Below, one piece after another: positions 13,935 through 31,822 of a DNA stretch of 64,000 bases; positions within the stretch are counted from its first letter, which is position 1, and every line of letters starts with the position of its first letter. A model generated the notes under the pieces. It saw only the letters and a program-made list of their open reading frames with translations, did not search any database and was not told where the DNA came from. The DNA is from Algoriphagus halophilus (lineage in GTDB: Bacteria > Bacteroidota > Bacteroidia > Cytophagales > Cyclobacteriaceae), in assembly GCF_900129785.1 (NCBI RefSeq), contig NZ_FSRC01000001.1, forward strand, positions 2,170,001-2,234,000. The letters are read 5' to 3'. A program made the position numbers and the translations under genes.

Positions 13935-13939
13935 AAATG

Positions 13940-14281
13940 TTAAATTGCAACTCCCCAATATAAAAACCTAAGTTCATCTATTCCTTCATTATGTAGAGAA
14001 TGAAGAACGCCTGCGGGGATTTCTAATAGTAAGCCATTGTAAATTTTAATATCCTCTCCTCCAACGCGATATGTACCTTCACCATTTAGGAAATAAAAAT
14101 ACTCAAACATTGTAGGATGCATATGCTCTTCGCAAGATTCATCTGGTTGAAAAACACCAATTGCAATTTGAGTCAATGAATTGTCAAGCTCATCATTCTT
14201 TTTAAAAACTAGCTTTTTTCCAAAGCCATGAGCATTATCTACAGGAACTAAACTCTTTAAATCTACACAATAATTAGACAT
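13940..14281 (-). CDS. Small cupin-domain protein
   Basis: About 113 residues from ATG 14281, which overlaps the upstream epimerase stop by 8 bp; an upstream in-frame start at 14335 lies inside the epimerase gene and is unlikely. The single cupin domain has metal-site motifs: [19 protein letters not shown] (cupin motif 1, His and Glu ligands) and [11 protein letters not shown] (motif 2 His). It may be a sugar isomerase/epimerase or a regulator or partner of the neighbouring epimerase. Which one cannot be decided from sequence. Five bases separate it from the UDP-glucose dehydrogenase start. Confidence 0.75.
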
Positions 14282-15251: not shown

Positions 15252-16027
15252 TTATTTAATTTAAGTTTATAATTTATTAAATCTTTTACTCCGTAAAATG
15301 CGAATTTTGGTACGATGCTCACATACCTTTTGTAGAGTCTTTTTGGTTCTACACTTAATCTGAATAACCACTCCAACCCCGACTTTTGGATCCATTTTGG
15401 GGCTTGCTTAACATTACCAATATGAAAATCGAATGCAGCACCAACTGTAATTAAAAAATCCACTTGCGTAAATTGTGAAAGATATTTGGCGAACTTCTCC
15501 TGCTTTGGACTGCTAATCCCAACCCAAACAATATTTGCACCCGAAGAGTTTATTAGATCGGAAATAGACTCATAGTCATAATCTTTGACATCCATAAATG
15601 GAGGACAAAACGTCCCTACTACATTATTATTTTCAAACTTCTCACTACATGCCTGTTTTAATTTATCAGCTACCCCTTCCATACCTCCACAAAAAAAATG
15701 TTTAATATTTGTGTTACATGATTTGACCATCATAGCTTCAAAAAAGTCCGGCCCATAGCACCTCTCCATAGCTTTTGCTCCTTTAGCCCTTCCTACCCAT
15801 ACTCCAGGCATACCGTCAGGCAAATTGATATAAAACTCATTTAAAACCTTGTTGAAATTTGCATCTGTTTTTGCTTCCATGATGCCATGTGCACCTGTTG
15901 CACTGATGCACCTGTTTGTCCCGCTACTCTCCCTGTGAATAATCTCTGACAAAACAAGATCAACAGCTGAATCAAATCCATCTTTAAAAAGTGGTATATC
16001 TACCACAGTAATAGCTCTATTTATCAT
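15248..16027 (-). CDS. WecG/TagA/CpsF family glycosyltransferase (GT26)
   Basis: 259 residues. Typical GT26 features: SATGAHGIMEAKTD, INLPDGMPGVWVGRAKG, RCYGPDFFEAM, HFFCGGMEGVADKL, VWVGISSPKQEKFA and VGAAFDFHIGNVKQAPKWIQKSGLEWLFRL. Known members transfer ManNAc, ManNAcA or glucose to undecaprenyl-PP-linked GlcNAc or similar at the membrane face. In this locus it could act second, after the WecA-like enzyme. Start ATG 16027 overlaps the upstream gene by 4 bp (ATGA). Confidence 0.92.
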   Translation of the reverse strand: MINRAITVVDIPLFKDGFDSAVDLVLSEIIHRESSGTNRCISATGAHGIMEAKTDANFNKVLNEFYINLPDGMPGVWVGRAKGAKAMERCYGPDFFEAMMVKSCNTNIKHFFCGGMEGVADKLKQACSEKFENNNVVGTFCPPFMDVKDYDYESISDLINSSGANIVWVGISSPKQEKFAKYLSQFTQVDFLITVGAAFDFHIGNVKQAPKWIQKSGLEWLFRLSVEPKRLYKRYVSIVPKFAFYGVKDLINYKLKLNK

Positions 16028-17193
16028 GACTGGTCCATTGCTAGTTTAAAGGCACTTATGTGAATTCGGGCGCACTCAGACACATCGTATTTTTCTAAAG
16101 CTTCGCACTTATTTAATTCTCCTATTCTCTCTATTTCATTTTGGTTCAAACTAAGTTGTATAAGATAATCTACAGCCTTATCCAAATCGTCTAACTGATA
16201 TAAACAGCCATTCTCCATATCTTTTACCACCTCAGAAATTGCACCAACATCAGAAGTCACTATAGGCAATGAAGAAGCCATTGATTCCAAGATGACCGTG
16301 GGCACTCCTTCTGCTTTGGAAGACAATAAAAACACATCAAACGCAGATAAATAATCTGATATCTCAAACTTAGGTATTGAAACAGTAAGGAAGCCATCTC
16401 TACCTAAGCCTTTAGCTTCTATCAGGTCAATTACATTACTTTTGTAGTAAGTCCATTGGGATTCTGTCTTATTTCCGATGACCCTGAAAAACACACCGTC
16501 TTTACCAGCTTTTTGCTTAAATCTATCGCATATTTTTACAAAATTTTCATGGGCCTTTTGCCTGTTTTGATTCCCGATAGTGCCGATCAGAAAAGCATCA
16601 TTCGGAACATCTAAATAGCCACGCATCATTTTTTTTTTGTCTTCATCGAATTTGAATGAATTGCAATCAACAGGTGGGTAAAACGGTATCAAATTGTTGA
16701 ATTTTGCAATATCTCCATGTTCTTTTGCTATTTGCAAACCTGTCGTCATGATCACATCCGAATGTTTCTTAACGAAGGGTGACAAAAGGTTTCGCAACCA
16801 CTTAGGTGCAAAATTACTTAATAACTGCCACACAACTGGTTTATTGCTACGATTGGCAGCTATAGCACCTTGGATATTAAATAGACCACAAAGCTGGACC
16901 AAGTCAATCTTATTACTAACAATTACTTCCTGAATAAACTTTATATCAGAAAAAAAATTAGTAAAATATTGAAAATGAATGGCTAAGTTTAATGACTTTC
17001 TCGGCCTGTGCAATTCTCGATTGATGACTTTTATTCCCTTCTCTTTCAACCTTCTTGTTCCAGTCCCATTTGGGTCAGGAGTTAATACAATGTATTGATA
17101 TCCCGCTTTTTTAAGAGAATCATTTAATCTGAAAATCTGATTATGAGGCCCACCAAAAGTTGGAGTCAGAATTATAGCTAGAATATATTTCAT
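16024..17193 (-). CDS. Glycosyltransferase family 4 (GT-B)
   Basis: 389 residues. Starts with an N-terminal glycine-rich acceptor loop (LTPTFGGPHNQIFRL) and has the C-terminal nucleotide-sugar domain: IGTIGNQNRQKAHENFV, DVFLLSSKAEGVPTVILESMA with the EX7E motif, and PIVTSDVGAISEVV. It is a retaining cytoplasmic glycosyltransferase for repeat-unit assembly; donor and acceptor are unknown. Its start shares one base with the upstream stop and its stop overlaps the GT26 start, so it is embedded in the operon. Confidence 0.9.
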   Translation of the reverse strand: MKYILAIILTPTFGGPHNQIFRLNDSLKKAGYQYIVLTPDPNGTGTRRLKEKGIKVINRELHRPRKSLNLAIHFQYFTNFFSDIKFIQEVIVSNKIDLVQLCGLFNIQGAIAANRSNKPVVWQLLSNFAPKWLRNLLSPFVKKHSDVIMTTGLQIAKEHGDIAKFNNLIPFYPPVDCNSFKFDEDKKKMMRGYLDVPNDAFLIGTIGNQNRQKAHENFVKICDRFKQKAGKDGVFFRVIGNKTESQWTYYKSNVIDLIEAKGLGRDGFLTVSIPKFEISDYLSAFDVFLLSSKAEGVPTVILESMASSLPIVTSDVGAISEVVKDMENGCLYQLDDLDKAVDYLIQLSLNQNEIERIGELNKCEALEKYDVSECARIHISAFKLAMDQS

Positions 17194-18332
17194 TAGTTTT
17201 TTAGTCTCATTAAATCTTTCAAAAAATGAATATTTTCAAGCGATTTCTCCACCATTACGTTAGGGGTTACTTCTGCAATAAACCTTTGATCATTACCAAT
17301 AGATAATTCGTAAATGCTATTTTTAATTTTATCAGTCCCCAAATAACTTTTATTCAAAGGGACACATGCGTCAGGATGAAGTTTTACATCAAAGGCCAAG
17401 TCCTCAAGCTTCCTGTGGTAAGCCAGAAACAATAAGGGCAATGAAGAAATATAGCCTAACATCGCTGAATGATATCTAGAAGCGATAAAGCCACCTCTAC
17501 ATTCTGCAATTTCATTTAAGGTGGAGATTGGATTATAATTAAAGTTAGACAGTGCCACTCTACTCTCAGAGAATATACCAATAAGTCTATTAAAAAGAAG
17601 ACGAGAGATATCCACATCTGACTCTCTTTCACCACCTCTAATAACAAATATTTTAACCTTCAAATTTGCATTGGCTACCATTGCCTTATTAAGCCCATCA
17701 AAGACCTGATCCTGATAGAGTTGATTTAAATCTTCTCCTTCGGCATTATAATAATGCAAGGGAGTCAAAGAAACTCCTATTAGGCTTGAATCAATCTCAG
17801 AACGGCTCAAGGGCAATAATGCAGCCAAATCAAAAGTCAAAAAAGTATTACTTGATACCATTCCCAAGGTTTTAATTTCTTCATAGGAAGCCATATCTCT
17901 TACCGTAGTAAGATTAGATAATCTAATTGCAGCTTGGGTCAATACTTTCGTAAAAGAATATTTAAACGGTCCCAATCCATTTCCAATCAAACATACTTTT
18001 TTACCGGAGATTCTTGCCAAGGTAAAAATACCCAAATAACGGAAAAGGTATCGTACATGTCGAAGATACCTAGAAAACACATAATCATCATGGAAATGAG
18101 TACCACCACATAAAATAACAAAATCTGAATTTTTAAGAGATGATAAAATTTGCTTAACACCAGGCTTAACAATTTTAACGGGAAAGTTAAAAAAATAATC
18201 AGAACTACTTCCCTTAGACACCAGTTCGATTCTAAAATCCGAATTAACATTCAATTGAGTAAGCAACCCATATAACATTGCTTCATCTCCAGTATTATGA
18301 CCACCAAAGTGACCTAATATTAAAAGATTCAT
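17193..18332 (-). CDS. Polysaccharide pyruvyl transferase family protein (PF04230)
   Basis: 379 residues. N-terminal LGHFGGHNTGDEAMLYGL and the middle CGGTHFHDD and GNGLGPF loops, plus the C-terminal ASRYHSAMLGYISSLPLLFLAYHRKL with the conserved His, match the family that adds ketal-linked pyruvate from PEP to sugars (CsaB, WcaK, GumL relatives). Some members do not use pyruvate, so the assignment is by family. In this locus pyruvylation would add negative charge to the polysaccharide, complementing glucuronate and sulfate. It lies 3 bp downstream of the sulfotransferase gene. Confidence 0.85.
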   Translation of the reverse strand: MNLLILGHFGGHNTGDEAMLYGLLTQLNVNSDFRIELVSKGSSSDYFFNFPVKIVKPGVKQILSSLKNSDFVILCGGTHFHDDYVFSRYLRHVRYLFRYLGIFTLARISGKKVCLIGNGLGPFKYSFTKVLTQAAIRLSNLTTVRDMASYEEIKTLGMVSSNTFLTFDLAALLPLSRSEIDSSLIGVSLTPLHYYNAEGEDLNQLYQDQVFDGLNKAMVANANLKVKIFVIRGGERESDVDISRLLFNRLIGIFSESRVALSNFNYNPISTLNEIAECRGGFIASRYHSAMLGYISSLPLLFLAYHRKLEDLAFDVKLHPDACVPLNKSYLGTDKIKNSIYELSIGNDQRFIAEVTPNVMVEKSLENIHFLKDLMRLKN

Positions 18333-18335
18333 AAT

Positions 18336-19106
18336 TTACTTTAAATAAATATCATATACTTGATCTCCTTTAGAAGGATTGCCTGCCATACTATGATTTA
18401 AATTAATAATTTTCATATGACGATCCTCAAAATAAGGAATTGACATATCCGTCATTTTATTAAATTGAGAAATATAAAAATTAGGGTCTTTCCGAAAATT
18501 ATTGAAATTTAAGAATAACCGGTTTTTAGATTTGGTAGTATAATAAGCTAAAAAACTCCAAAATACTTCAATTGCAAATAATTTAGCAGAAGAAAAATAA
18601 GATTTACTACCCAAATAAGATTTTTCTTTACTCCAAGAATCAACAACTTCTTTATAAGGTCTATAAACCCAAATAAAATAAGATTCGGAATGAAATAATT
18701 TGAGAATTTTATAAAGTTTACCCATTTTACTACTATCTACAAAAAAAGTAGAATCTTTAAACTTATTAAAAATATAATAGTTATAATTTCGAATATAATC
18801 TAAATCATTTTTATTTAATTTATAAAAGAAATTAGACATTCTTACCTTAGAATAAAGATTAGGATTATAAGGAAAATCATGAATTAAATTATTATAAACA
18901 TTATAAGGACACTTATATACTGGTACACCACAACCGCAAGAAGTGTGTTCTGAAGGAACTTTCCGAGAATCATCATTATTTCTATAGATAAAAAATCGAA
19001 ACAATTCACCTAAGAATACAGCATTAGCACAATTAGAAAAAACATTTCCTATCAAAGTAGTACCAGATCTACTCGCTCCTCCTATAAATATTAATTTTTT
19101 CTTCAC
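18336..19106 (-). CDS. Sulfotransferase family protein (polysaccharide sulfotransferase candidate)
   Basis: 256 residues from GTG 19106. The PAPS 5'-phosphosulfate loop FIGGASRSGTTLIGN is at residues 7-21, and VDSSKMGKLYKIL and FIWVYRPYKEVVDSW resemble the 3'-phosphate-binding strand and helix. It is predicted to be cytoplasmic, with no signal peptide, and to transfer sulfate from PAPS to a sugar hydroxyl. PAPS genes cysC/D/N and the PAP phosphatase cysQ are in the same gene series. The start lies inside the end of the polymerase gene (38-bp overlap). Base composition is very AT-rich, like the next two genes upstream. Confidence 0.82.
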   Translation of the reverse strand: MKKKLIFIGGASRSGTTLIGNVFSNCANAVFLGELFRFFIYRNNDDSRKVPSEHTSCGCGVPVYKCPYNVYNNLIHDFPYNPNLYSKVRMSNFFYKLNKNDLDYIRNYNYYIFNKFKDSTFFVDSSKMGKLYKILKLFHSESYFIWVYRPYKEVVDSWSKEKSYLGSKSYFSSAKLFAIEVFWSFLAYYTTKSKNRLFLNFNNFRKDPNFYISQFNKMTDMSIPYFEDRHMKIINLNHSMAGNPSKGDQVYDIYLK

Positions 19107-20244
19107 TTTGAGAAATAAAATAAATTAGAAAATAAATAAACTGAATTGTATTATAAATAAATACATTATCCGAAATCAGAATTATTACAAATGTAAATGT
19201 AAACATAAACAATAACAAGAAATTATAACCAAAAAAATAAAAAAACTTAAGGTAATATATAAAAAATAAAACACCTAAAATAATACCAAATTCAACAAAA
19301 ATCTTTAAAATATCGGAATGCACTAAAGTCAAATTAGTAAAACTCAAAGAGGAAGTATAAATTGACAATTCACCAAGATTATAACCGAATAATGAAATTA
19401 CATTATATTCTTTAAAAAGATTATAATAAATTAAATAACGTCCTGCGCTAAATTGATTAGGAGAAACCATTAAATTATTATATATAAAATCATCATAAAC
19501 CCCATATCCAAAATTAATTATAATGAAATAAATAAAAAAAATAGATAAAAAATATAAAACTTTAAGGGATTTTAAATTAACTATTTTATAAATTTTAAAA
19601 TATGCTAAAAAAAGCATAAATAAAACAATAAAAATAGGCAATCTTTTACCGACTACTAACATCATGAAGATAGAAATAATTAAATAAGAATACTTTTTAT
19701 TATATATAAAATAAAGACAATACGGTATATATAAAAAACAGATTATTGACTCAGAAGCTGAATTAAATCCATGAGAAATAAAATTATTAAGATTATTTAG
19801 AATTAAAAAATCAAAATTATGAGTTAGAAAAGTAAATAAAATTAATATATAAAAACTGTAAATAATGAAAATCCTAGGAAAAGATTTAAAATAAGGGTGC
19901 ATACTGAAAAAATAAAGAATAGAAGAAAAGATCCCTGAGAAAACTAAGAAAAGTTCTTTAAAAGCCATAAATCCATCTTTATAATTTAAATTAGTCAAAG
20001 ATTTTAAGCAAATAAATAATAAAATTATCATAAAAAAACCCAAAAATGATTTTAAAAAACGAACATCAGAACAAGATAATGACGGTTTTCTTTTAATAAA
20101 AAGAATAGCAACAAATATAAATAAAAAATTCTTAAGGTATGACGAAAATCCCATATAAGGTATAAAAATAAAGAAAAAAATAGTAGAAATTTCAGCAATT
20201 GCTAATAACTTACTATATCTAGAATACACTGTTAAGGAAGTCAA
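19069..20244 (-). CDS. O-antigen/exopolysaccharide polymerase, Wzy-like
   Basis: 391 residues, almost entirely hydrophobic with about ten to twelve predicted membrane segments and no recognisable enzyme motif in the N-terminal half. A larger polar loop near residues 265-310 (NNLMVSPNQFSAGRYLIYYN, then VISLFGYNLGELS and LVHSDILKIFVEFGI) resembles the periplasmic loop of Wzy proteins. Position between the flippase and transferases supports Wzy. G+C is far below the flanking genes (many lines below 20%), common for laterally acquired polymerase genes. Sequence similarity is always weak in this class, so the call leans on topology and context. Confidence 0.75.
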   Translation of the reverse strand: MTSLTVYSRYSKLLAIAEISTIFFFIFIPYMGFSSYLKNFLFIFVAILFIKRKPSLSCSDVRFLKSFLGFFMIILLFICLKSLTNLNYKDGFMAFKELFLVFSGIFSSILYFFSMHPYFKSFPRIFIIYSFYILILFTFLTHNFDFLILNNLNNFISHGFNSASESIICFLYIPYCLYFIYNKKYSYLIISIFMMLVVGKRLPIFIVLFMLFLAYFKIYKIVNLKSLKVLYFLSIFFIYFIIINFGYGVYDDFIYNNLMVSPNQFSAGRYLIYYNLFKEYNVISLFGYNLGELSIYTSSLSFTNLTLVHSDILKIFVEFGIILGVLFFIYYLKFFYFFGYNFLLLFMFTFTFVIILISDNVFIYNTIQFIYFLIYFISQSEEKINIYRRSE

Positions 20245-20245
20245 C

Positions 20246-21484
20246 TTATATAAATTTAAATAGAACTATATTATATTTCTCTCTAAGTATTCGTAAATAA
20301 AAAATATTTATAATAAGTAAAGACATAGAAGATAATACGGTCAAAATAATAGCTAAATCTAATTGATTAACATGGAAATATAATGATAAATAACCAGACA
20401 ACAATATAATGAACGTGGAGATTAAATAATAAATACTTTGAAATCTTGCAACAGAATTAAGATTTCCAAAAATTTTAATCAAAGTAAATGTAGGTCCTGT
20501 AAGACCATTTAAAGCTTTTGATAAAAATAGAATAAAGGACAATACATAAAATAAATTAATAAATTTTTCCGGTATTAACAAAATATCGATTAGAAAGAAA
20601 ACTAAAAAATAGGAAAAAATTGGAAATAAAAACCCAAAAATAAAAAATAATTTTATTTGTTTTTTCAGAAACACTCTAAATTCAAATGAAAAATTTCTTA
20701 AATTAGAGTATACTGGGGCATTTGAAATATTTAATATTTGATATGGTAATTCAACTCCATTACTTAATTTTTTACAAATACTAAAAACTCCTAGAATATC
20801 ATTTGTGGTAAAAAAAGAAAATATATATGTAATTCCATGAGAATTAAAAGAGTTAGAAACTTCCAAAACACTTGCATTAAAATAAGTTCTTATAACAGAA
20901 AAAGGTATTATTGATGGAGAAACTAGTATTAATTGTTTATACCACGAAAAAACTAATTTTACAACAATTATAAAATTTATAAAATAAGAAATAAAAAAAA
21001 TAAACGGTAAGTGACTTGACCCAACAAATATAATTAATAAAAATTGAATTAAAAGAAAAAATGAATTGGTAAATAATAGATACAAACCTACCTTATTATC
21101 TCTTCTGAGTAACTCAGAAAACACAAACGAAAGTGAAAACAAGTGTGCAGAAATCACAACATAGAAGGGAATTTTTAACGAGATATATAAAATTATATTT
21201 AAAAAAAATTGAAATATATTAATGAAATAAAAATATGAGAATTTTTTACGTATTAAATCTACATCGTTCATATCTACCCTTAATATCATAGTATCAAAAC
21301 CAAACTTAAGAAATATTGAATATATTGCGATAAATGAAAAAAAATATGAAAATTCTCCATACTTAGAAACACCACCATCATAGTTAGTCATATAATAAAG
21401 TATTAAATAACTTAAACCTATACTTGATAGTCTAATTATTAGAAGAACTAATTTTTTTTCAAAAAATTCGCCTTTTGATCTCAT
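20246..21484 (-). CDS. Polysaccharide flippase, Wzx-like (MATE/MOP superfamily)
   Basis: 412 residues with about twelve predicted membrane helices. The arrangement LRLSSIGLSYLILYYMTNY at the N-terminus followed by YGEFSYFFSFIAIYS is typical of Wzx/RfbX proteins, which flip undecaprenyl-PP-linked repeat units across the inner membrane. It begins the very AT-rich block and ends 1 bp before the polymerase start. Length is normal. No charged catalytic residues are expected in this family. Confidence 0.82.
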   Translation of the reverse strand: MRSKGEFFEKKLVLLIIRLSSIGLSYLILYYMTNYDGGVSKYGEFSYFFSFIAIYSIFLKFGFDTMILRVDMNDVDLIRKKFSYFYFINIFQFFLNIILYISLKIPFYVVISAHLFSLSFVFSELLRRDNKVGLYLLFTNSFFLLIQFLLIIFVGSSHLPFIFFISYFINFIIVVKLVFSWYKQLILVSPSIIPFSVIRTYFNASVLEVSNSFNSHGITYIFSFFTTNDILGVFSICKKLSNGVELPYQILNISNAPVYSNLRNFSFEFRVFLKKQIKLFFIFGFLFPIFSYFLVFFLIDILLIPEKFINLFYVLSFILFLSKALNGLTGPTFTLIKIFGNLNSVARFQSIYYLISTFIILLSGYLSLYFHVNQLDLAIILTVLSSMSLLIINIFYLRILREKYNIVLFKFI

Positions 21485-21546
21485 TAATTTTCGAAATAAA
21501 ATTTCAATATTTTTTTATTAGAATAATATTATACTACCAAAAAAAT

Positions 21547-22341
21547 TCATTTCTTCTTATTCAAATTTATCTCTAACAAAAAAGTTATAAAATATGGATT
21601 TAATAAATCAATTTTATTATAGTTTATTATATGATTATTAGGCCATTGTAACATATGCCCATTCATCGCTAATATCACACCATGAGCTGCTGCAGTATCC
21701 CACTCCATTGTAGGGGCAAACCGAGGATAAACCTGAGCTTTTCCTTCAGCGACCAACATAAATTTCAGTGAAGAGCCCATAGAAATCACTTCTACTCCAG
21801 GGTATTGATCGATAAAATCTTGAGTTTCGGGACTAAGATGGGAGCGACTGGCAACAATTGTTTTAACTTCTGAAGAAAATCTTTTTTTCAATTGAAAGGC
21901 AGTGGCAGACCCTTCTTGTTTCCAAGCTCCCTCCTCTTTATTACCCCAATACAACCATCCCAAAACAGGTGCATAAACGACACCTAGTATAGGCTGCCCT
22001 TCATGAATTAAAGCAATATTTACCGTAAACTCTCCATTCTTTTTAATAAACTCTTTGGTTCCATCCAGTGGATCTACCATCCAAAAATAATCCCAAACTT
22101 TTCTTACTTCGTAGGGAATGTCCTTTCCCTCTTCAGATAAAATAGGAAGTCCCGTTTTTTCGAGAAAGTTTTCAATTACTTGATGCGCTGCTTGATCTGC
22201 TTTGGTGAGTGGAGAATTATCACCTTTCATTTCAACACCAAAATCAGCCGAATTGTAGATTTCAAGAATTGCTTTGCCTGCGACTACAGAAGCTTCTTTG
22301 GCAAGAGAGGTAAGTTGTTTTATGTTGATTTTTGAATTCAA
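21547..22341 (-). CDS. cysQ: 3'(2'),5'-bisphosphate nucleotidase CysQ
   Basis: 264 residues of the inositol-monophosphatase superfamily. Metal-binding motifs: LSEEGKDIP, DPLDGTKEF (about residues 91-99) and the C-terminal EWDTAAAHGV. CysQ hydrolyses PAP, the by-product of sulfotransfer, to AMP and phosphate, relieving product inhibition. It lies between the sulfate-activation genes and the flippase, in the same direction, which fits a role in sulfation rather than only in cysteine synthesis. Start ATG 22341. Base composition returns to the locus average here. Confidence 0.93.
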   Translation of the reverse strand: MNSKINIKQLTSLAKEASVVAGKAILEIYNSADFGVEMKGDNSPLTKADQAAHQVIENFLEKTGLPILSEEGKDIPYEVRKVWDYFWMVDPLDGTKEFIKKNGEFTVNIALIHEGQPILGVVYAPVLGWLYWGNKEEGAWKQEGSATAFQLKKRFSSEVKTIVASRSHLSPETQDFIDQYPGVEVISMGSSLKFMLVAEGKAQVYPRFAPTMEWDTAAAHGVILAMNGHMLQWPNNHIINYNKIDLLNPYFITFLLEINLNKKK

Positions 22342-22359
22342 TGCTGTCTTATTAATCCT

Positions 22360-22396
22360 CCTTAGCCCCCTTTGAAAAAGGGGGAATTGATTGGGA
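22360..22396. repeat. REP-like palindromic intergenic element, copy 1
   Basis: Core CCCCCTTTGAAAAAGGGGG (22366-22384) is a near-perfect inverted repeat, flanked by AATCCTCC on the left and AATTGAT on the right. A related element lies at 29268-29302. It sits inside the cys gene series, between cysN and cysQ. Confidence 0.6.
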
Positions 22397-22463
22397 GTAA
22401 ATTTGTATTCTATTTGTAAATTGTAAATAAATATCTTGACTCTAGGATCTAAAATCTTGACTC

Positions 22464-23723
22464 TTAGATTATCATTCCAGCTCCGACCGTCTCATTTGTA
22501 TTTGGATCAATTAGGATAATGGAACCGGTTTGTCTATTTTTACTATAGGAGTCAAAGAAAACAGGTTGTGCTGTTCGTATAGAAATTCTTGCAATGTCAT
22601 TCATACCTATCTTCTGAATATTTTCTATTCTATGTAGTGTATTCACATCGACTTTATATTGAATATCCTTTACCATGGCCTGGCACTCCTTCGTAGTATG
22701 CTTCACAATCAACTTGGTTCTATTTTGAAGGGACTTTTGATTCATCCAACAAACCATCACTTCTAAATCTTGCTCGACTTTCGGTTGATTATTAGGTCTA
22801 ACTATCATATCCCCTCTACTGATATCTATCTCATCTTCAAGTGTCATAGTGACTGACATTGGAGCATAGGCCTCATCAATGGCTTCCCCATTCAGTTCTA
22901 TACTTTCAACCTTGGAAGTAAATCCAGAAGGTAAAATCTTCACTTCATCACCTGGCTTAAAAATTCCTCCATCTATTCTACCTGCATACCCCCTAAAATC
23001 CTGGAAATCCAAGGTATGGGGACGAATTACCATTTGCACAGGAAATCTGCAATCTATATGGTTGAAATCAGAGGCTATATGAACATGTTCTAAATGATAC
23101 AATAAAGTGGAGCCTTCATACCAATGCATGTTCTCAGATCTGTCTACAACATTATCTCCTTTCAAAGCAGAAATGGGTACAAATTGAACATCTTTGATAT
23201 CCAACTTGGATGAAAAAGCCTCATAATCTGCAACAATTTTGTTATAGACATCTTCAGAATAATCTACCAAATCCATTTTGTTCACACAAACTACCACATG
23301 TGGGATATTCAAAAGCGAGGCGATGAAAGAGTGCCTATAAGTTTGTTCTAATAAACCCTTACGTGCATCTACCAAAATAATGGCAAGGTTAGCAGTGGAT
23401 GCTCCCGTTACCATATTTCGAGTGTATTGAGTATGACCAGGAGTATCTGCTATGATAAATTTCCTCTTAGGGGTGGCAAAGTATCGGTAGGCTACATCAA
23501 TAGTGATTCCCTGTTCTCTTTCGGACTTTAATCCATCAGTGAGAAGTGATAGGTCTACATAATCAAAGCCTTTTTTTTCAGAAGAAGACTTTACAGCCTC
23601 AATTTGATCCTCAAAAATTGATTTGGAATCGAATAGAAGTCTTCCGATTAATGTGCTTTTCCCATCATCTACTGAGCCTGCGGTAGTAAATCGAAGTAAT
23701 TGATTGTTTTCTTGTATAGACAT
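22464..23723 (-). CDS. cysN: Sulfate adenylyltransferase subunit 1 (GTPase) CysN
   Basis: 419 residues. Translation-factor-type GTPase motifs: G1 GSVDDGKSTLIGRL (about 16-29), G3 DTPGHTQY, G4 NKMD. Beta-barrel domains follow. CysN couples GTP hydrolysis to adenosine-5'-phosphosulfate synthesis by CysD. The length shows a CysN without a fused CysC kinase domain, consistent with the separate cysC gene at 24805. The short spacer to cysD (154 bp) contains degenerate repeats. Confidence 0.95.
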   Translation of the reverse strand: MSIQENNQLLRFTTAGSVDDGKSTLIGRLLFDSKSIFEDQIEAVKSSSEKKGFDYVDLSLLTDGLKSEREQGITIDVAYRYFATPKRKFIIADTPGHTQYTRNMVTGASTANLAIILVDARKGLLEQTYRHSFIASLLNIPHVVVCVNKMDLVDYSEDVYNKIVADYEAFSSKLDIKDVQFVPISALKGDNVVDRSENMHWYEGSTLLYHLEHVHIASDFNHIDCRFPVQMVIRPHTLDFQDFRGYAGRIDGGIFKPGDEVKILPSGFTSKVESIELNGEAIDEAYAPMSVTMTLEDEIDISRGDMIVRPNNQPKVEQDLEVMVCWMNQKSLQNRTKLIVKHTTKECQAMVKDIQYKVDVNTLHRIENIQKIGMNDIARISIRTAQPVFFDSYSKNRQTGSIILIDPNTNETVGAGMII

Positions 23724-23802
23724 TATTATGAATTCTTATTGATCAATTGAATTTGTTGTCATTGCAAACGCAGAGAGAAATATTATTTTTATTTAAACTT
23801 AC

Positions 23803-23877
23803 AAATAGATTTCTCTTTGTACCTCGTCTAAATGACTATAAAATCTAGATACTAAATACTATGTACTAGATACTATT
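23803..23877. repeat. Degenerate TAGATACTA/AAATACTA repeat between cysD and cysN
   Basis: A stretch built from repeated ACTATAAAAT, TAGATACTA, AATACTATG and TAGATACTA units directly abuts the cysD stop codon. No gene or terminator is visible in it. Function unknown. Confidence 0.4.
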
Positions 23878-24783
23878 CTAAAAATACCCCGCCTTCTTTC
23901 TATCTTCCATAGCGGTTTCTCCTCGTTTATCATCAGCCCTTGTCCCACGCTCTGTAGTCCTAGTTGTTGCAACCTCTTCAATGATCAATTCAAGAGTATC
24001 TGCATTCGAAAGAACAGCTCCTGTAATAGGCATATCTCCACAAGTTCTATAACGAACAACCAATTTCTGAATCTCTTCCCCTTCTTTCAATGGCAAATAT
24101 TCTGACTTCGCTAAAATCACTTCATCACGTACCACACATTCTCTTTCGTGAGAGAAGTACAAGGATGGCAAAGCAATATTCTCTTCCTTGATGTACTGCC
24201 AAACATCCATTTCTGTCCAGTTAGAAATTGGAAAAACCCTAAAATGTTCCCCATGATGCTTTCTACCATTAAACAAATTCCAAAGCTCAGGTCTTTGGTT
24301 TTTAGGATCCCACTGACCAAATTCATCTCTATGGGAAAAGAAACGCTCCTTCGCTCTAGCCTTTTCTTCATCTCTTCGGGCACCGCCCATAGCAGCATCA
24401 ATTTTCAAATCCTCTAAAGTATCTAATAAAGTTATCGTCTGAAGTGAATTTCTACTAGCATTTACCCCAGTCTCTTCTCTAACTCTCCCTTTGTCAATAC
24501 TTTCTTGCACTGACCCCACTACTAATTGTACTCCCAATTCTTTAACCAAAGCATCCCGAAATTCCAAGGTTTCTGGGAAGTTATGACCGGTATCAATGTG
24601 AACTAATGGAAATGGAATTTTTGCAGGATAAAATGCCTTTTTGGCAAGGTGCGCCAAGAGAATACTATCTTTTCCTCCTGAAAATAGTAGAGCCGGCTTC
24701 TCAAACTGAGAAACAACTTCGCGTATGATGAAAATTGCCTCTGCTTCCAGTTCTTTTAAATGTGATAAATAGTATTGTCCCAT
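23878..24783 (-). CDS. cysD: Sulfate adenylyltransferase subunit 2 CysD
   Basis: 301 residues. PP-loop ATP pyrophosphatase motif LLFSGGKDSILLAHLA (about 33-48), GGARRDEEKARAKER, and the conserved C-terminal RTTERGTRADDKRGETAMEDRKK region. It catalyses ATP plus sulfate to APS with CysN. ATG start 24783, 21 bp after the cysC stop. No sulfite reductase or PAPS reductase gene is found in the window. Confidence 0.96.
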   Translation of the reverse strand: MGQYYLSHLKELEAEAIFIIREVVSQFEKPALLFSGGKDSILLAHLAKKAFYPAKIPFPLVHIDTGHNFPETLEFRDALVKELGVQLVVGSVQESIDKGRVREETGVNASRNSLQTITLLDTLEDLKIDAAMGGARRDEEKARAKERFFSHRDEFGQWDPKNQRPELWNLFNGRKHHGEHFRVFPISNWTEMDVWQYIKEENIALPSLYFSHERECVVRDEVILAKSEYLPLKEGEEIQKLVVRYRTCGDMPITGAVLSNADTLELIIEEVATTRTTERGTRADDKRGETAMEDRKKAGYF

Positions 24784-24804
24784 TGTTTATTTCTGGATTG
24801 TGGA

Positions 24805-25398
24805 TTAATGGCAAATGTTTGCCGAAATTGTTTTGATTACTTTTTGAACAGAATCTTTCAATTCTTCTTGATCAGAATGCACATGAACCGCTGGGTTTAA
24901 GGGCTCTTCATAAGGAGAATCAATTCCTGTAAAGTTTTTGATAATACCTTTTCTTGCCTTAGCATATAGCCCTTTTACATCCCGTTTTTCACAAACCTCA
25001 ATAGGACAGTCCACAAATACTTCCAAGAAGTTTTCTTCCCCGACCAATTTTGCTATCATCTCTCTTTCCTCCCGAAAAGGAGAAATAAATGCGGAAACAA
25101 CTAAGAGCCCTGCATTCATCATCAACTTAGCCACCTCTGCGATTCTTCGAATATTTTCAATTCTATCTTCATCCGAAAAGCCTAAATCTTTATTCAGACC
25201 GGTTCTAATATTATCCCCATCTAACAAATAGGTCATATAACCGTCCTCAAAAAGTTGGGTTTCTACTGCATTTGCCAATGTTGATTTTCCCGAACCTGAT
25301 AAGCCAGTAAACCAAATCAACTTTGGTTGTTGCTTCAAGCGCTCTTTTCTCTGTTGTCCTGAAATTTTAAATACAGTAGGATGTATATGGTTTTCCAT
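24805..25398 (-). CDS. cysC: Adenylylsulfate kinase CysC
   Basis: 197 residues. P-loop FTGLSGSGKSTLANA (about 30-44), DGDNIRTGLNKDLGFS substrate motif, RIAEVAKLM and FISPFREERE. It phosphorylates APS to PAPS, the sulfate donor for the downstream sulfotransferase. Starts one base after the permease stop. Length is typical of stand-alone CysC. Confidence 0.96.
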   Translation of the reverse strand: MENHIHPTVFKISGQQRKERLKQQPKLIWFTGLSGSGKSTLANAVETQLFEDGYMTYLLDGDNIRTGLNKDLGFSDEDRIENIRRIAEVAKLMMNAGLLVVSAFISPFREEREMIAKLVGEENFLEVFVDCPIEVCEKRDVKGLYAKARKGIIKNFTGIDSPYEEPLNPAVHVHSDQEELKDSVQKVIKTISANICH

Positions 25399-25399
25399 A

Positions 25400-27157
25400 T
25401 TAGAAATAATATAAATATATAAAACTGATCACTATACTGGAGTAGATGATAGTTAATGGCAAGCCTATTCTTGTATAGTCAGAGAATTTATAGTTCCCTG
25501 GTCCTAATACCATCAAATTCGTTTGATAGCCAATTGGAGTCATAAAGTCTGCAGAAGCAGCAAAGGCTATGGCAATAAAATAAGGGGTTAAATTTTCTCC
25601 AAGACCTAAACCCATTTCATAGGCCACCGGAAACATAATAGATACTGCTGCAGCATTAGTAATCAAAGTTGTTAAACCTAAAGTCAGTAAAAACAAAATA
25701 CTTATTTCACCAATAGGACTCAATCGTGGAAATATTCCAGAGATTTGCTGAACTAAAAATGAAGCCGAACCTGATTTTTGGATTGCCACTCCTACAGCTA
25801 AGGCTGAAACCAAAATTATCAAAAGATCCACATCTATGGCAGATTTAATCTGATTCAGATTAATTACTTTAGACAAAGTCATTACTAAAATCCCAATAAA
25901 GGCAGCAAGAAATAAATCTATGAATCCAAAAATACCAATCAATAGTATTCCAATTGAGAGTATGCTCGGTAAAGTCTTTTTAAATGACAGATCAGTTTGA
26001 ACCTCGCCTGATTTGGATAGCACAATCAAGTCCCTAATAGAAATTACTCTGGAAAAATCCTTAGAACAAAGAAGTAATAATAAATCACCCTCCTTCAATT
26101 TAATCTCACCAAGATTCTCTTTTACTTTTTCCCCTTTTCTATAAACCGAAATTACTGAGGCCTTATATTTGTCTCGAAATCCTAAATCTTTTAGGGACAC
26201 ACCTACCAAATCACTTCCTGATGGAATTACAGCTTCTGTCAATGCCGAGAAGCCATTGCTTACTAGGTGTGTTGTTTCAGGAAGTTCCAATCCATTATTA
26301 TCATTGATTAAATCTAAAATAGAATGTGTATTCCCTGCAAAAAAAAGCACATCATCGGCATGAATTATTCGATCAGAGGATACTGCAGCAATGCTTCTTT
26401 CTCCTCTTTTGATTTCAACCAAAAACAAATCCTTTAAATGCCTTAACCCTGCCTCTTCTATGGTTTTTCCAATCAAAGCTGAGCTTGAATTTACTTTGGT
26501 TTCCACTAAATACTCATTGAGATGCTCCAACAAACTTTCTTTTTTTGTGGTGGTGTTTGGCAATAACTTTTCAGAAAAAAAGGCCAAATAGCTTAATCCC
26601 AAAACGGTAACTATTCCTCCTAAAAATAAGAAATCAGAGTAGTTTAGAGAAGGAAGTCCTGATTGAACAATCAACCCATTTAAGACCAAATTGGTGGAAG
26701 TACCAACTATCGTGATCATCCCACCTAATATGGTTGCGAAAGAAAGTGGAATCAAGAATTTTGATGCAGAATACCCGTTGCTTTCTGACCAGTTCTTAAC
26801 GTAGGGGATCATAAATGCCACCACAGGAGTATTATTAAGCATACTGGACAATCCTGAAACTGTTAACATCATCCTCAATCGAAACTGAAAAGGTGAAAGC
26901 ATCTTATTGAAAAGGGTGTAAAAAAAGCCTTTTCCAAGATTTTGCTGAATTCCAGAAGTAAGAATTATCAGTAAGAAAATTAAGATAATTTGCTTATTAG
27001 CTAGTCCTAGTAAAAAATCCTCTATAGAAATCACTTTTAAAATTACAAAAGCAAAAACTACAAGCACAAATGCCAAAGAAGGTTTTAGCCAGTTTTTGTA
27101 AAGGGTGATGACTAACCCAGTTACCAAACAAATCGTACTAAAAATTTGGATTGACAA
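25400..27157 (-). CDS. SLC13/DASS-family permease with two RCK-C (TrkA-C) domains, likely sulfate importer
   Basis: 585 residues. Membrane helices in about 1-190 and 400-585 flank two soluble RCK-C-like segments (about 205-285 and 300-385). Transport signatures include SSMLNNTPVVAFMIP and the C-terminal LTTLITNAAAVSIMFPVA pair of hairpins. Members of this family import sulfate, dicarboxylates or other anions with sodium. Position directly before cysC-cysD-cysN points to sulfate. The only usable start is TTG 27157 (no in-frame ATG before the first helix), 20 bp after the upstream stop. Confidence 0.88.
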   Translation of the reverse strand: MSIQIFSTICLVTGLVITLYKNWLKPSLAFVLVVFAFVILKVISIEDFLLGLANKQIILIFLLIILTSGIQQNLGKGFFYTLFNKMLSPFQFRLRMMLTVSGLSSMLNNTPVVAFMIPYVKNWSESNGYSASKFLIPLSFATILGGMITIVGTSTNLVLNGLIVQSGLPSLNYSDFLFLGGIVTVLGLSYLAFFSEKLLPNTTTKKESLLEHLNEYLVETKVNSSSALIGKTIEEAGLRHLKDLFLVEIKRGERSIAAVSSDRIIHADDVLFFAGNTHSILDLINDNNGLELPETTHLVSNGFSALTEAVIPSGSDLVGVSLKDLGFRDKYKASVISVYRKGEKVKENLGEIKLKEGDLLLLLCSKDFSRVISIRDLIVLSKSGEVQTDLSFKKTLPSILSIGILLIGIFGFIDLFLAAFIGILVMTLSKVINLNQIKSAIDVDLLIILVSALAVGVAIQKSGSASFLVQQISGIFPRLSPIGEISILFLLTLGLTTLITNAAAVSIMFPVAYEMGLGLGENLTPYFIAIAFAASADFMTPIGYQTNLMVLGPGNYKFSDYTRIGLPLTIIYSSIVISFIYLYYF

Positions 27158-27177: not shown

Positions 27178-28110
27178 TTATATTAAAGATTCAAAGTAAC
27201 TTATAGTTTTCTTTAAGCCATCTTCTAGCTGTATTCTTGGATCCCAATCCAATTCTTTCTTAGCCAGCTCAATGACAGGTTGTCTCTGTAATGGATCATC
27301 CTGAGGTAGCGGAAGAGAAACCAGTTTGCTTTTACTATTGGTTAATTCCAAAATCAGCTGAGCTAATTCCAACATAGTAAATTCACCAGGGTTCCCAATA
27401 TTAACAGGACCAGTAAATCCATTTCGGGAATTCATCAATTTGTACATTCCCTCAATATTATCATCTACATAGCAAAAGCTTCGAGTCTGAGAACCATCTC
27501 CGAAAATAGTGATGTCTTCTCCTTTTAACGCTTGTACAATAAAATTACTTACCACTCGTCCATCTTCCGGATCCATCCTTGGTCCATAGGTGTTAAAAAT
27601 TCGCATTACCTTAATTTCCAATCCATGTTGTCGGTGGTAATCAAAAAACAAAGTCTCTGCACACCTTTTCCCCTCATCATAGCAAGCTCGAATTCCAGTG
27701 GTACTCACTGAACCTTTGTAAGATTCAGGTTGAGGATGTACCTCAGGGTCTCCATATACCTCAGAAGTACTGGCTTGCAAAATCTTGATTTTTAACCGCT
27801 TTGCCAATCCCAACATGTTGATCGCTCCCATCACAGATGTTTTGGTAGTCTGGACTGGATCAAACTGGTAATGAATCGGGCTTGCGGGACATGCCAAATT
27901 GTAAATCTCATCCACTTCTACATACAATGGGAAGGTAATGTCGTGCCGCATAAATTCAAAATTCTTATAATCCATTAAATGATGAATATTCGACTTACTA
28001 CCTGTATAGAGATTATCCACACATAATACCTCATTCCCTTCTGTAATCAGTTTGTCACAAAGATGGGAACCTAAAAACCCTGCACCACCAGTAACCAAAA
28101 CTCTTTTCAT
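27178..28110 (-). CDS. UDP-glucuronate decarboxylase / UDP-xylose synthase (UXS-type SDR)
   Basis: 310 residues. NAD motif [16 protein letters not shown] (residues 5-20), [30 protein letters not shown], catalytic [22 protein letters not shown] and [12 protein letters not shown] are all diagnostic of UXS enzymes. It decarboxylates UDP-glucuronate to UDP-xylose. UDP-glucose dehydrogenase at the far end of the same series supplies the substrate. ATG 28110. An AT-only inverted repeat lies upstream, perhaps separating it from the cytidylyltransferase gene. Confidence 0.92.
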
Positions 28111-29360: not shown

Positions 29361-31817
29361 TTATTTCCTTCTCAGCGCCCTTTTCCACCAAGGAAGTGGT
29401 GTAGCTTCTTCATGGTACCCATAGGAGTTTCCTCCGTATCCATAGCCATAGCCATACCCATAGCCATACCCATAGCCTTTGTCAATGTGCATATCATTCA
29501 AAATCCCATAAATCTTGGTTACCCCTCCTTTTTCCACCAAATTATTTAAAATTTGTGTATTCCCTTTCATAGAATACCCCTGACGGAATACATAGAATGA
29601 AATGTCGGCTAAGGCGAATAATTCCTTGGTTTCAGAAACTAATCCTACAGGAGGACAATCAAACACCACCACATCGTATGATTGCTTAATCTCATTGATA
29701 ATTTGTGTAAACTTATCCTGAAGTAATAACTCTGCAGGATTAGGCGGAATGGGACCCGACAATATCACATCAAAATCTTGATGGCCTGAAGATTTTACTA
29801 CCGACTGCCAAGGGGTATCTGAACTCAAACAGGTACTCATTCCCTTATCATTCGGCAATCCAAAATCCTCCGCAATTTTAGGTTTCCTTAAATCCAAACC
29901 TATTAAAATTGTTTTCTTACCCATCAAGGCATAAACGGAAGCCATATTAATAGAAACAAAGGTTTTACCTTCTCCAGATATACTTGAGGTAAATAAGATC
30001 GTCAAATTATCCTTTTGCTGACTTAAATAAGTCATATCTGCTCGAAGGGAACGAAATGATTCAGTAACTGTGGACCTAGGATTATTTAATACAGGTAATG
30101 CATCATAAGAGGTATTTCTTCCTACCATCCCAATTAATGGTACTTTAATTTGATTCTCTAAATCTTTTGGATCCTCGATTTTAGTATTCAAAAAATCTTT
30201 AACTGTGATAAATCCAATTGGCACAATCAATCCTAAAATCAACCCGATCAATAAATTTAAAGAACGCTTCGGTGCAACAGGTTCTTGACCAGCTTTTGCA
30301 AAATCTAAAATCGTATTTTTAGGCATATTTGAGGCTTTGGTAATTTCAGCTTCTGCCTTTTTCTGCAATAAATACACGTAAATATTTTCATTGATTGAAA
30401 ATTGCCTTTGAATCCCCAATAAATCCCGCTCAGTTTTAGGCAAAGAATTGATGTCTGATTCAATCATCCGAATTCTATTGCGGATATCTGCCAACACATT
30501 TTTAGTATTATTTAAAGCTAAATTGGTGTTTTCTTGCAATTGCTTTTTGGTACTTGCAATACGGCTTGCATTTTCTCTAACAGCAGGAGCTTGTTCGGTA
30601 AAATTTGAACGTAATTTAATTTGTTCTGCCTGTAATTCTGCTAATGCATTTACCAATGAATTCAGCAAGGGATCCGTAATTCCAATAATAGAAGGAGCTA
30701 CTAAATCTCCACCTTGATTACTTTCCAAATATTCATTTAATGTTTCATAGTATTTTAAGCTAATTTCTGTCTCACTTTCCTCTTTCTCCAATTCGGTCAG
30801 CCTTTCAAAAATTACTGAACCTTCTTCTGATAAATTGAAAATATTATTATCTGAACGATATTCCTGCAACTTATTTTCTGAAAAAGCTAAAGAGTCTGAA
30901 ATACCTGCCAATTGTTGATCAATAAAACGAATGGTACTTTCTGACGCACGATTTTTTTCATCTAACTCAAGTTTCAGATACATTTCCATTAGCTTATTGA
31001 TGTATTCCTCACCTAGTTTTCTTACGGGAGTTTCAATGCTTAATAAGAGTATCGAGGCTTGTTTGTTAATAGGCGAAACCGATAACTCCTCCCGAAATGA
31101 TAATGCCAAAGTGGGTACATCAACTAGACGAACTTCAAATTTATCTCCAGGCTCAGCCTTAATATTATTGACTTTAAAAGACAAGTAATCTGATTCAATT
31201 TGCTCTCCAAAAGAATAAACTGATTTATTAAGAACTGGGTCGAAGTCCAATTCCTCAGGGTATTTTTTATAAAAAGGATCGTCTGGATTAAAAACCCTAA
31301 AATCATTATCCTCAATAGATATTTCAAAGGAATTGTCATTTATAATTTCAATTTCAAATAGACCTCCAACCCATTGAGAGTGGTTCCAATCAACTGAAAC
31401 GATAATAGGCAAATTACCATATAATTGACTTGAGGTGATTATTCCATCCTCAAAATATTCAACTTGTAAATTTAATTGGGAAATGGTTTCCTCTGCTAAA
31501 GAATAAGATTTTAAAATACCAATTTCATCCTCAATGTTGCTTTTTCCTTGAAGTCCAAAACCAGCAGATTCAAACAAATCCATACCCAACGCAGGCTCTT
31601 CATCCTCCACCAAAACACTAGATTCAACTTTATATATCGGAGTAGAATATCTATTAAATAAAAAAGCACCTACAACCCCTACTACCATAAATGCTAAAAT
31701 AAGCGGCCAATATTGTAAATAATTAAACAATAAAACTTTCAGGTCGATTTCATCTTCCTTTTGTACCATATATGAATTCTGGTTGGAGTTACCAGGAGAT
31801 GGAGTATTTGGGTACAT
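29361..31817 (-). CDS. Polysaccharide co-polymerase / tyrosine autokinase, Wzc-like (copy 1)
   Basis: 818 residues. N-terminal Wzz domain with a membrane helix near 33-53, long periplasmic coiled coil (about 280-480), second helix near 525-545, then a cytoplasmic BY-kinase: Walker A SSISGEGKTFVSINMA, Walker A' IGLDLRKPKIA, Walker B VVVFDCPPVGLVSE. The C-terminus carries seven consecutive Gly-Tyr pairs then SYGYHEE, an autophosphorylation tail. It controls chain length and export together with the lipoprotein gene 5 bp upstream. A paralogous pair lies at 33714-37003. No cognate phosphatase gene is visible in the window. Confidence 0.93.
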   Translation of the reverse strand: MYPNTPSPGNSNQNSYMVQKEDEIDLKVLLFNYLQYWPLILAFMVVGVVGAFLFNRYSTPIYKVESSVLVEDEEPALGMDLFESAGFGLQGKSNIEDEIGILKSYSLAEETISQLNLQVEYFEDGIITSSQLYGNLPIIVSVDWNHSQWVGGLFEIEIINDNSFEISIEDNDFRVFNPDDPFYKKYPEELDFDPVLNKSVYSFGEQIESDYLSFKVNNIKAEPGDKFEVRLVDVPTLALSFREELSVSPINKQASILLLSIETPVRKLGEEYINKLMEMYLKLELDEKNRASESTIRFIDQQLAGISDSLAFSENKLQEYRSDNNIFNLSEEGSVIFERLTELEKEESETEISLKYYETLNEYLESNQGGDLVAPSIIGITDPLLNSLVNALAELQAEQIKLRSNFTEQAPAVRENASRIASTKKQLQENTNLALNNTKNVLADIRNRIRMIESDINSLPKTERDLLGIQRQFSINENIYVYLLQKKAEAEITKASNMPKNTILDFAKAGQEPVAPKRSLNLLIGLILGLIVPIGFITVKDFLNTKIEDPKDLENQIKVPLIGMVGRNTSYDALPVLNNPRSTVTESFRSLRADMTYLSQQKDNLTILFTSSISGEGKTFVSINMASVYALMGKKTILIGLDLRKPKIAEDFGLPNDKGMSTCLSSDTPWQSVVKSSGHQDFDVILSGPIPPNPAELLLQDKFTQIINEIKQSYDVVVFDCPPVGLVSETKELFALADISFYVFRQGYSMKGNTQILNNLVEKGGVTKIYGILNDMHIDKGYGYGYGYGYGYGYGGNSYGYHEEATPLPWWKRALRRK
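29436..29477 (-). repeat. In-frame hexamer repeat encoding (Gly-Tyr)n in the kinase tail
   Basis: Seven imperfect GGNTAY units in a row, largely alternating GGCTAT and GGGTAT. Addition or loss of one unit would keep the frame and change the number of tail tyrosines. Confidence 0.7.
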
Positions 31818-31822
31818 ATAAC

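What the first reader, a model, noticed from the sequence alone, without database searches (positions are those of the whole stretch)
18336..27157. Self-contained sulfation module within a polysaccharide operon
In one gene series: SLC13 permease (probable sulfate import), CysC, CysD and CysN (PAPS synthesis), CysQ (PAP removal) and a PAPS sulfotransferase, together with Wzx, Wzy and glycosyltransferases. No PAPS reductase or sulfite reductase lies in the window, so the cys genes here seem to serve sulfation, not cysteine synthesis. Sulfated capsules or EPS are well known from algae and animals but little described in Bacteroidota.
Basis: partly seen in the sequence, partly recalled or inferred. 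Interest (0 to 1): 0.72.

Follow-up and report, generated by a model that had tools for sequence, protein, structure and literature searches.

The report
Dedicated sulfation cassette in capsule locus
A Bacteroidota bacterium close to Algoriphagus carries, inside a surface-sugar gene locus, its own complete kit for making activated sulfate and putting it on a molecule, separate from the genes it uses to make cysteine, so its capsule or slime is probably sulfated; such kits are known elsewhere, so this is a well-supported new example and not a new kind of system.

Summary
Minus-strand genes from 27157 down to 18336 encode an SLC13/DASS permease, CysC, CysD, CysN, CysQ and, beyond two polytopic membrane proteins, a divergent PAPS sulfotransferase (ST). 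The ST is below Pfam's cut-off, but an aligned AlphaFold model matches solved PAPS sulfotransferases.

The only convincing CysC is the window's.

Among 52 genomes of the genus, 17 have CysC. All 13 with a Sulfotransfer_3 match are among them; 0 of the 35 without CysC have one. Of those 35, 34 keep the assimilatory cysD-cysH pair. Cassette and assimilatory CysD fall on opposite sides of a 100/100 branch.

The cassette is a conserved DNA block in genus loci whose flanks otherwise differ, beside sulfotransferases of different Pfam families.

Limits: the acceptor is inferred; no chemistry exists; in most other genera of the family no ST was seen near CysC, and one CysDN probably serves both uses. 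PAPS cassettes in capsule clusters (Cobetia, Vibrio) and a B. thetaiotaomicron cholesterol-sulfation cluster are published. New member of a known kind.

The parts
25400..27157 (-). SLC13/DASS-type anion permease with TrkA_C domains; probable sulfate importer
   Evidence: Pfam CitMHS E 1.6e-47, Na_sulph_symp E 1.2e-12, TrkA_C; TIGR00785 below its cut-off; a homologue is in 11 of the 12 genus loci with CysC-linked CysD, window included
24805..25398 (-). CysC, APS kinase: APS to PAPS; the only convincing APS kinase found in the genome
   Evidence: TIGR00455 270 bits; whole-genome PF01583 search and check of the next-best match; P-loop present
23878..24783 (-). CysD, ATP sulfurylase small subunit, cassette copy
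   Evidence: TIGR02039 417 bits; 65% identical to the assimilatory CysD; separate side of the CysD tree, 100/100
22464..23723 (-). CysN, ATP sulfurylase GTPase subunit, cassette copy
   Evidence: TIGR02034 571 bits; 49% identical to the assimilatory CysN
21547..22341 (-). CysQ, 3'(2'),5'-bisphosphate nucleotidase: removes PAP
   Evidence: TIGR01331 270 bits, cut-off 229
20246..21484 (-). Polytopic membrane protein, candidate Wzx flippase
   Evidence: hydropathy, position, 21.6% GC; no family match; no relative but itself among 7990 scored candidates
19069..20244 (-). Polytopic membrane protein, candidate Wzy polymerase
   Evidence: hydropathy, position, 20.2% GC; no family match
18336..19106 (-). 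PAPS sulfotransferase, divergent Sulfotransfer_3-like, no predicted membrane segment; GTG start
17193..18332 (-). Polysaccharide pyruvyl transferase family protein (second probable acidic decoration)
   Evidence: PF04230 E 3e-23
16024..17193 (-). Group 1 glycosyltransferase
   Evidence: PF00534 E 7e-23
15248..16027 (-). WecG/TagA/CpsF glycosyltransferase
   Evidence: PF03808 E 9e-49
12537..15251 (-). NAD-dependent epimerase/dehydratase (14274-15251) and UDP-glucose/GDP-mannose dehydrogenase family protein (12537-13958)
27178..28110 (-). SDR-family NAD-dependent epimerase/dehydratase (called UXS-like here; name inferred)
   Evidence: Pfam Epimerase E 1e-48; no NCBIfam model reaches its cut-off; a homologue lies near cysC in 9 of 44 family loci, but in the 11 genus loci compared there is none or only a 24-27% match
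29361..32686 (-). Wzc-like chain-length/kinase protein and Wza-like exporter
   Evidence: GNVR/Wzz/AAA_31 and Poly_export
10605..12314 (+). Wzi-like capsule assembly protein
   Evidence: PF14052 E 6.8e-12

Best explanation
A surface-polysaccharide locus with a built-in sulfate-activation cassette. Sulfate enters through the SLC13-type permease; CysDN makes APS; CysC makes PAPS; the cytoplasmic sulfotransferase at 18336-19106 transfers sulfate from PAPS to a sugar of the lipid-linked repeat unit before it is flipped, polymerised and exported (Wzx/Wzy/Wzc/Wza, Wzi); CysQ removes the product PAP. Cysteine is made from a separate APS-reductase operon elsewhere in the genome. Shown by sequence: the gene set, the second operon, no second convincing CysC, co-occurrence across genomes, separate CysD lineages. 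Inferred: sulfate as the permease's substrate, PAPS use by this ST, the polysaccharide as acceptor, and the order sulfation then flipping.
Against: No chemical or genetic data. In the family at large a listed Pfam sulfotransferase lies within 25 kb of CysC in only 9 of 45 CysC genomes, own included (contig ends and an unlisted tail of matches make this a lower bound), so the tight module is not general. In the genus a sulfotransferase was recognised in the fetched flanks of 6 of 12 loci with CysC-linked CysD, window included; three of the other six (L168, L172, L173) are cut by contig ends, and L163 holds only a weak PF13469 match (18.3 bits; no Pfam match at 1e-3). Four of 17 CysC genomes have no PF13469 match; one of them (G099) has a PF00685 protein near the cassette (L165; L013). 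CysH-like proteins of other genera (11 of 16 loci) lack the CC..RK motif and have CC..NK instead, so their substrate is less sure. The ST is weak to Pfam.
Confidence: 0.78

Rival explanations
1. PAPS made here serves a different acceptor, for example a lipid, sterol-like compound or small molecule, and the ST's place in the polysaccharide locus is incidental, as in the B. thetaiotaomicron cholesterol-sulfation cluster.
For: The closest published Bacteroidota cluster of similar make-up that I saw ends in a cholesterol sulfotransferase (PMC9417993, passages). Acceptor cannot be read from sequence. The listed profile relatives of the ST are unnamed, hypothetical or only 'sulfotransferase' (best 120 of 313).
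Against: The ST sits between the candidate wzy and a pyruvyl transferase, shares the low GC of wzy/wzx (25, 20 and 22%) and not that of the cassette (35-40%), and like that block has no counterpart in the 11 fetched genus loci (stretches of up to about 20 kb, not whole genomes). Other sulfotransferases near the cassette also lie among glycosyltransferases, flippases and polymerases.
Confidence: 0.15
2. The cassette is mainly a second sulfate-assimilation set; CysC makes PAPS for a PAPS reductase, and sulfation is a side use.
For: In 38 of the 41 family genomes with CysD beside CysC, that CysD is the only one matched and a CysH-like protein lies elsewhere (rows); of 16 CysH-like loci read in the family, 11 lack the CC..RK motif. 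Two genus members have cysH-sir without cysDN, so cassette APS probably feeds assimilation there.
Against: CysH in the own genome is of APS-reductase type. In 28 of 28 loci read (26 of them with CysH beside CysD) CysH carries both CCxxRK and GCxxC. 34 of 35 genus genomes without CysC keep the CysD-CysH pair. G077 and G092 have CysC-CysD without a CysH match.
Confidence: 0.05
3. The 18336-19106 protein is an inactive or different P-loop protein, so the locus makes PAPS for no local enzyme.
For: Under Pfam's gathering score; no solved-structure hit by single sequence; only one relative found by single-sequence search; the single-sequence model failed.
Against: Loop residues and R149 invariant, S157 nearly so, in 50 aligned sequences; the profile matches solved sulfotransferases at E 3e-15; fold match. 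All 13 genus genomes with a PF13469 match have CysC.
Confidence: 0.06

Closest known systems
Capsule cluster of Cobetia marina KMM 1449 (PMC11766843, abstract start and passages seen)
   Same: PAPS set (cysN/cysC fusion, cysD, cysQ, sulfate permease) and sulfotransferase in a capsule gene cluster; sulfated polymer structure reported
   Different: Cobetia is a gammaproteobacterium (recalled); ABC-transporter (kps) export; CysN-CysC fused; no test of separation from assimilation in the passages seen
Capsule cluster of Vibrio sp. KMM 8419 (PMC11641403, abstract start and passages seen)
   Same: second copies of cysC, cysN and cysD plus sulfotransferases in a capsule cluster; sulfated polymer structure reported
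   Different: Vibrio; ABC export; 'cysQ' has 0 occurrences in the main text
Bacteroides thetaiotaomicron BT_0411-BT_0416 (PMC9417993, passages seen)
   Same: same phylum; putative PAPS synthesis genes with a proposed sulfate importer beside a sulfotransferase shown by deletion and recombinant enzyme
   Different: acceptor is cholesterol; no polysaccharide locus mentioned in the passages seen; that BT_0411 is CysQ is my inference; sequences were not compared
Rhizobial NodPQ/NodH (NodH as a PF13469 protein: PMC11625862, passage; NodPQ as a dedicated PAPS set: recalled)
   Same: dedicated sulfate activation with a Sulfotransfer_3 enzyme acting on a sugar
   Different: acceptor is a glycolipid signal, not a capsule-type polymer

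Membership tests
Polysaccharide sulfation gene cluster (PAPS genes plus sulfotransferase in a polysaccharide cluster; hallmark stated in PMC11641403) | PAPS synthesis genes in the polysaccharide cluster | tested here: met
Polysaccharide sulfation gene cluster (PAPS genes plus sulfotransferase in a polysaccharide cluster; hallmark stated in PMC11641403) | Sulfotransferase gene in the cluster | tested here: met
   Pfam alone is below cut-off
Polysaccharide sulfation gene cluster (PAPS genes plus sulfotransferase in a polysaccharide cluster; hallmark stated in PMC11641403) | Glycosyltransferases and export genes in the cluster | tested here: met
   flippase and polymerase by hydropathy and position only
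Polysaccharide sulfation gene cluster (PAPS genes plus sulfotransferase in a polysaccharide cluster; hallmark stated in PMC11641403) | Polymer carries ester sulfate | not testable with these tools
   needs chemistry
PAPS-dependent sulfotransferase superfamily (Sulfotransfer_3-like) | 5'-phosphosulfate loop and 3'-phosphate residues conserved | tested here: met
   R13 S14 G15 T17 and R149 invariant, S157 at 90% or more, in 50 aligned sequences; the naming of these as PSB/PB residues is recalled
PAPS-dependent sulfotransferase superfamily (Sulfotransfer_3-like) | Sulfotransferase fold | tested here: met
Pfam PF13469 Sulfotransfer_3 | score at or above the gathering cut-off of 27 bits | tested here: not met
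   18.9 bits; several close relatives are assigned to it (P0004, P0006, P0007, P0010)
Assimilatory sulfate reduction set (PAPS type) | CysC linked to or needed by a PAPS reductase | tested here: not met
   no CysH in the window; the genome's CysH passes the APS_reductase model and not the PAPS_reductase equivalog. Need itself was not tested by experiment
Cholesterol/steroid sulfation cluster (BT_0411-0416 type) | PAPS cassette adjacent to a steroid sulfotransferase | tested here: inconclusive
   cassette make-up similar; acceptor of the window's ST unknown and BT_0416 was not compared

The most novel reading that the evidence does not exclude
In this lineage of Bacteroidota sulfation is a plug-in: a constant sulfate-uptake and PAPS cassette sits in otherwise variable capsule loci, and sulfotransferases of unrelated Pfam families (Sulfotransfer_1, _2, _3 and the divergent window type) are exchanged with the wzx-wzy-glycosyltransferase block. 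Because assimilation runs through an APS reductase, presence of CysC alone would predict a sulfated surface in the genus.
Probability: 0.5. Interest if true: 0.65.

Novelty: new member of a known kind. Interest (0 to 1): 0.5.

Why it matters
Marine Bacteroidota are known mainly as degraders of sulfated polysaccharides (recalled). One survey of mat genomes reported no sulfotransferase gene in its Bacteroidetes bins (PMC9723792, passages), whereas here 43 of 60 sampled genomes, one per genus of one family, have a Sulfotransfer_3 match at E 0.01, 41 over Pfam's cut-off. If the product is sulfated, these bacteria are also producers, with consequences for phage and predator contact, ion binding and carbon persistence (inference). 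The split between an APS-reductase assimilation operon and an accessory PAPS cassette gives a clean test: a cysC deletion should stay a cysteine prototroph and lose polymer sulfate.

Tried and rejected
Single-sequence structure prediction of the ST failed (pLDDT 32.7) and was discarded; the aligned model was used. A first motif scan for sulfotransferases in neighbouring loci missed most of them and is not used for counts; seed and profile searches replaced it. PDB search with the ST alone gave nothing. Promoter and terminator scans gave about what shuffles give (76 found, mean 72.0; 10 found, mean 9.5), so operon limits were not settled. No Rfam match at gathering score in the window. The idea that most relatives have two dedicated CysDN sets was rejected: in the family only G000 and G035 of 60 have both a CysC-linked and a CysH-linked CysD. 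The idea that the UXS-like gene belongs to the cassette was dropped: it recurs near cysC in 9 of 44 family loci but has no match or only a 24-27% match in the 11 genus loci.

A second CysC elsewhere in the own genome was rejected, although two further PF01583 matches are just above Pfam's cut-off: one is an AAA_33-type protein; the other, 42 of 152 positions in a long frame, was not scanned. Rows dropped: five rows (L037, L039, L040, L042, L045), none of them Bacteroidota by title, were left out of the second CysD tree; the first tree with them gave the same split (100/94, 6 assimilatory rows). Identical CysD rows were dropped in both trees. 'CysC-linked' rows include genomes where that CysD is the only one. 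Fisher tests ignore phylogeny. G027's CysC locus was not fetched.

Literature: ten full-text searches of the held library. The four that joined Bacteroidetes or Bacteroidota with sulfotransferase listed 0, 5, 0 and 7 papers; by title and start of abstract none was about a sulfated capsule cluster in Bacteroidota. Most subscription papers are not in that library. Papers were seen as passages only; the rest as listings.
Full report
OBSERVATION. The window lies in a 4.98 Mb, 8-contig genome whose nearest named CysC relatives are Algoriphagus (94% for A. locisalis). The minus-strand series SLC13-cysC-cysD-cysN-cysQ-(wzx)-(wzy)-ST-pyruvyl transferase-glycosyltransferase-WecG-epimerase-UDP-sugar dehydrogenase was confirmed by family models, except that wzx and wzy are names by position and hydropathy only and the ST needed other evidence (next paragraph). 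Upstream are a UXS-like SDR, a cytidylyltransferase-like protein and Wzc/Wza-like genes; beyond the far end are a Wzi-like protein, two Bac_transf sugar transferases, a Glycos_transf_4 protein, a DegT aminotransferase and a Polysacc_synt_2 protein.

The genome's three PAPS_reduct-family matches are the window's CysD and, on contig 2, an adjacent CysD and CysH; the two NIR_SIR matches lie in one gene of the same cluster. Reading that stretch gives rrf2-cysH-cysD-cysN-sir-SUMT and a siroheme-type gene (the last gene named from its sequence, not scanned). This CysH passes the APS_reductase model and misses the PAPS_reductase equivalog. The cassette CysD and CysN are 65% and 49% identical to that operon's copies. 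PF01583 gives the window's CysC (E 4e-69) and two matches just above Pfam's cut-off, the better of which is an AAA_33-type protein. PF01747 ATP sulfurylase gives no match. The one PF13469 match in the genome at E 0.01 is the window's ST; PF00685 gives none. Other sulfotransferase families were not searched in the own genome.

GENUS SURVEY (52 genomes, tallied). CysC in 17. PF13469 in 13 (11 over Pfam's cut-off), all among the 17; 0 of 35 without CysC. By CysD linkage: 8 genomes have both a CysC-linked and a CysH-linked CysD (own included); 34 have only the CysH-linked one and no CysC; 4 have CysC away from CysD; G088 has CysC, a CysH-linked CysD and a further stop-containing CysD match; G077 and G092 have only the CysC-linked CysD and no CysH match at E 1e-20; G090 and G105 have a CysC-linked CysD and a cysH-sir operon without cysDN; G095 (91% complete) has none. 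So the CysD-CysH pair does not need CysC, and the cassette can occur without CysH. The G090/G105 arrangement, however, suggests that cassette APS can feed assimilation.

FAMILY SURVEY (60 genomes, one per genus, tallied). CysC in 45; CysD beside CysC in 41; sulfotransferase (PF13469 or PF00685, E 0.01) in 41 of 45 with CysC and 2 of 15 without. Against a simple reading: a listed sulfotransferase lies within 25 kb of CysC in only 9 of 45, own included (the PF13469 listing was cut off, so this is a lower bound), and only G000 and G035 have both kinds of CysD linkage. In 38 of the 41 the CysC-linked CysD is the only one and a CysH-like protein lies elsewhere. Of 16 CysH-like loci read, 5 have CC..RK and 11 have CC..NK; all 16 have GC..C, so their substrate is less sure than in the genus. 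Sat occurs in 2 of 60.

CASSETTE HISTORY. A tree of 93 CysD proteins separates 67 CysC-linked rows from 26 assimilatory rows by one branch (100/100, 100% of 200 bootstrap trees). At DNA level the block from about 21.63 to 27.16 kb aligns in pieces at 67.6-82.1% with all 11 genus loci compared (in L017 only up to cysC), while nothing between 12.5 and 21.5 kb aligns with any of them (blastn E 1e-10, over 150 bases). These are fetched stretches of at most about 20 kb, so homologues elsewhere in those genomes are not excluded. At protein level ST, Wzx, Wzy, pyruvyl transferase and WecG have no counterpart in the same 11 stretches. In four of the 11 (L011, L013, L017, L161) the distal genes of the locus (within window 1.3-9.8 kb) are also conserved, which suggests the same chromosomal site. 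GC is 35-40% for the cassette and 25, 20 and 22% for ST, wzy and wzx: by composition the ST goes with the variable block. In other members the sulfotransferase near the cassette is of Sulfotransfer_1 type (L013, L167), Sulfotransfer_2 (L014), or both Sulfotransfer_1 and _3 (three genes in L010), among glycosyltransferases, Wzi, flippase or polymerase genes (30 selected proteins). Of the 12 genus genomes with CysC-linked CysD, 6 show a recognised sulfotransferase in the fetched flanks, the window included; three of the other six are cut by contig ends.

LINKED SUGAR GENES. A homologue of the window's UXS-like SDR (346-366 bits; self 712) lies near cysC in nine of 44 family loci (L083, L084, L086, L087, L090, L093, L095, L101, L104), which ties the cassette to nucleotide-sugar synthesis in other genera. 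It is not conserved beside the cassette in the genus. The enzyme's product is not established: no NCBIfam model reaches its cut-off.

COMPARISON WITH THE KNOWN. Capsule clusters of Cobetia marina and Vibrio sp. with PAPS genes and sulfotransferases and structurally characterised sulfated polymers are published (PMC11766843, PMC11641403; passages); [quoted passage not shown] In Bacteroides, BT_0411-0416 is a PAPS-plus-sulfotransferase cluster making cholesterol sulfate (PMC9417993; passages). Works like: the capsule clusters. Member of: the same kind, pending chemistry. What is added here is the phylum, a capsule-type locus with Wzi and candidate wzx/wzy, and comparative evidence that the donor cassette is separate from assimilation and constant while sulfotransferases change.

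Noticed in passing
window 29361-32686 and 33714-37003: Two Wzc/Wza-like pairs in a row on the same strand, separated by a CTP_transf_3 cytidylyltransferase (32856-33578): possibly two polysaccharide systems at one site.
   Followed up: partly
window 9071-10526: Two adjacent Bac_transf sugar transferases on the plus strand, opposite the main gene series.
   Followed up: no
L178 and L179 (G105, G090): The assimilatory cluster reads cysH-sir with cysDN missing between them; the only CysD matched in these genomes is in the sulfation cassette, suggesting that one cysDN set replaced the other.
   Followed up: partly
L129, L131-L140 (family genomes): Eleven CysH-like proteins with CC..NK in place of CC..RK, unlinked to CysD; eight lie beside a weak SDR match (L129, L131-L135, L138, L139) and three near a sulfite-reductase-like gene (L136, L137, L140).
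   Followed up: no
L163 and L172 (G077, G092): Cassette kept without any CysH match in near-complete genomes: possible loss of sulfate assimilation with sulfation retained; sulfite reductase was not searched there.
   Followed up: partly
L170 (G065): Two CysC genes in tandem, away from CysDN.
   Followed up: no
L124 (G043:C69): A 577-residue open frame with both ATP-sulfurylase (PF01747) and APS-kinase (PF01583) matches, probably a fusion, besides a CysC-CysD-CysN set in the same genome (L105).
   Followed up: no
window 20246-21484: The candidate Wzx has no relative other than itself at E 1e-3 in the large protein database, although only the 7990 candidates sharing most words were scored.
   Followed up: partly
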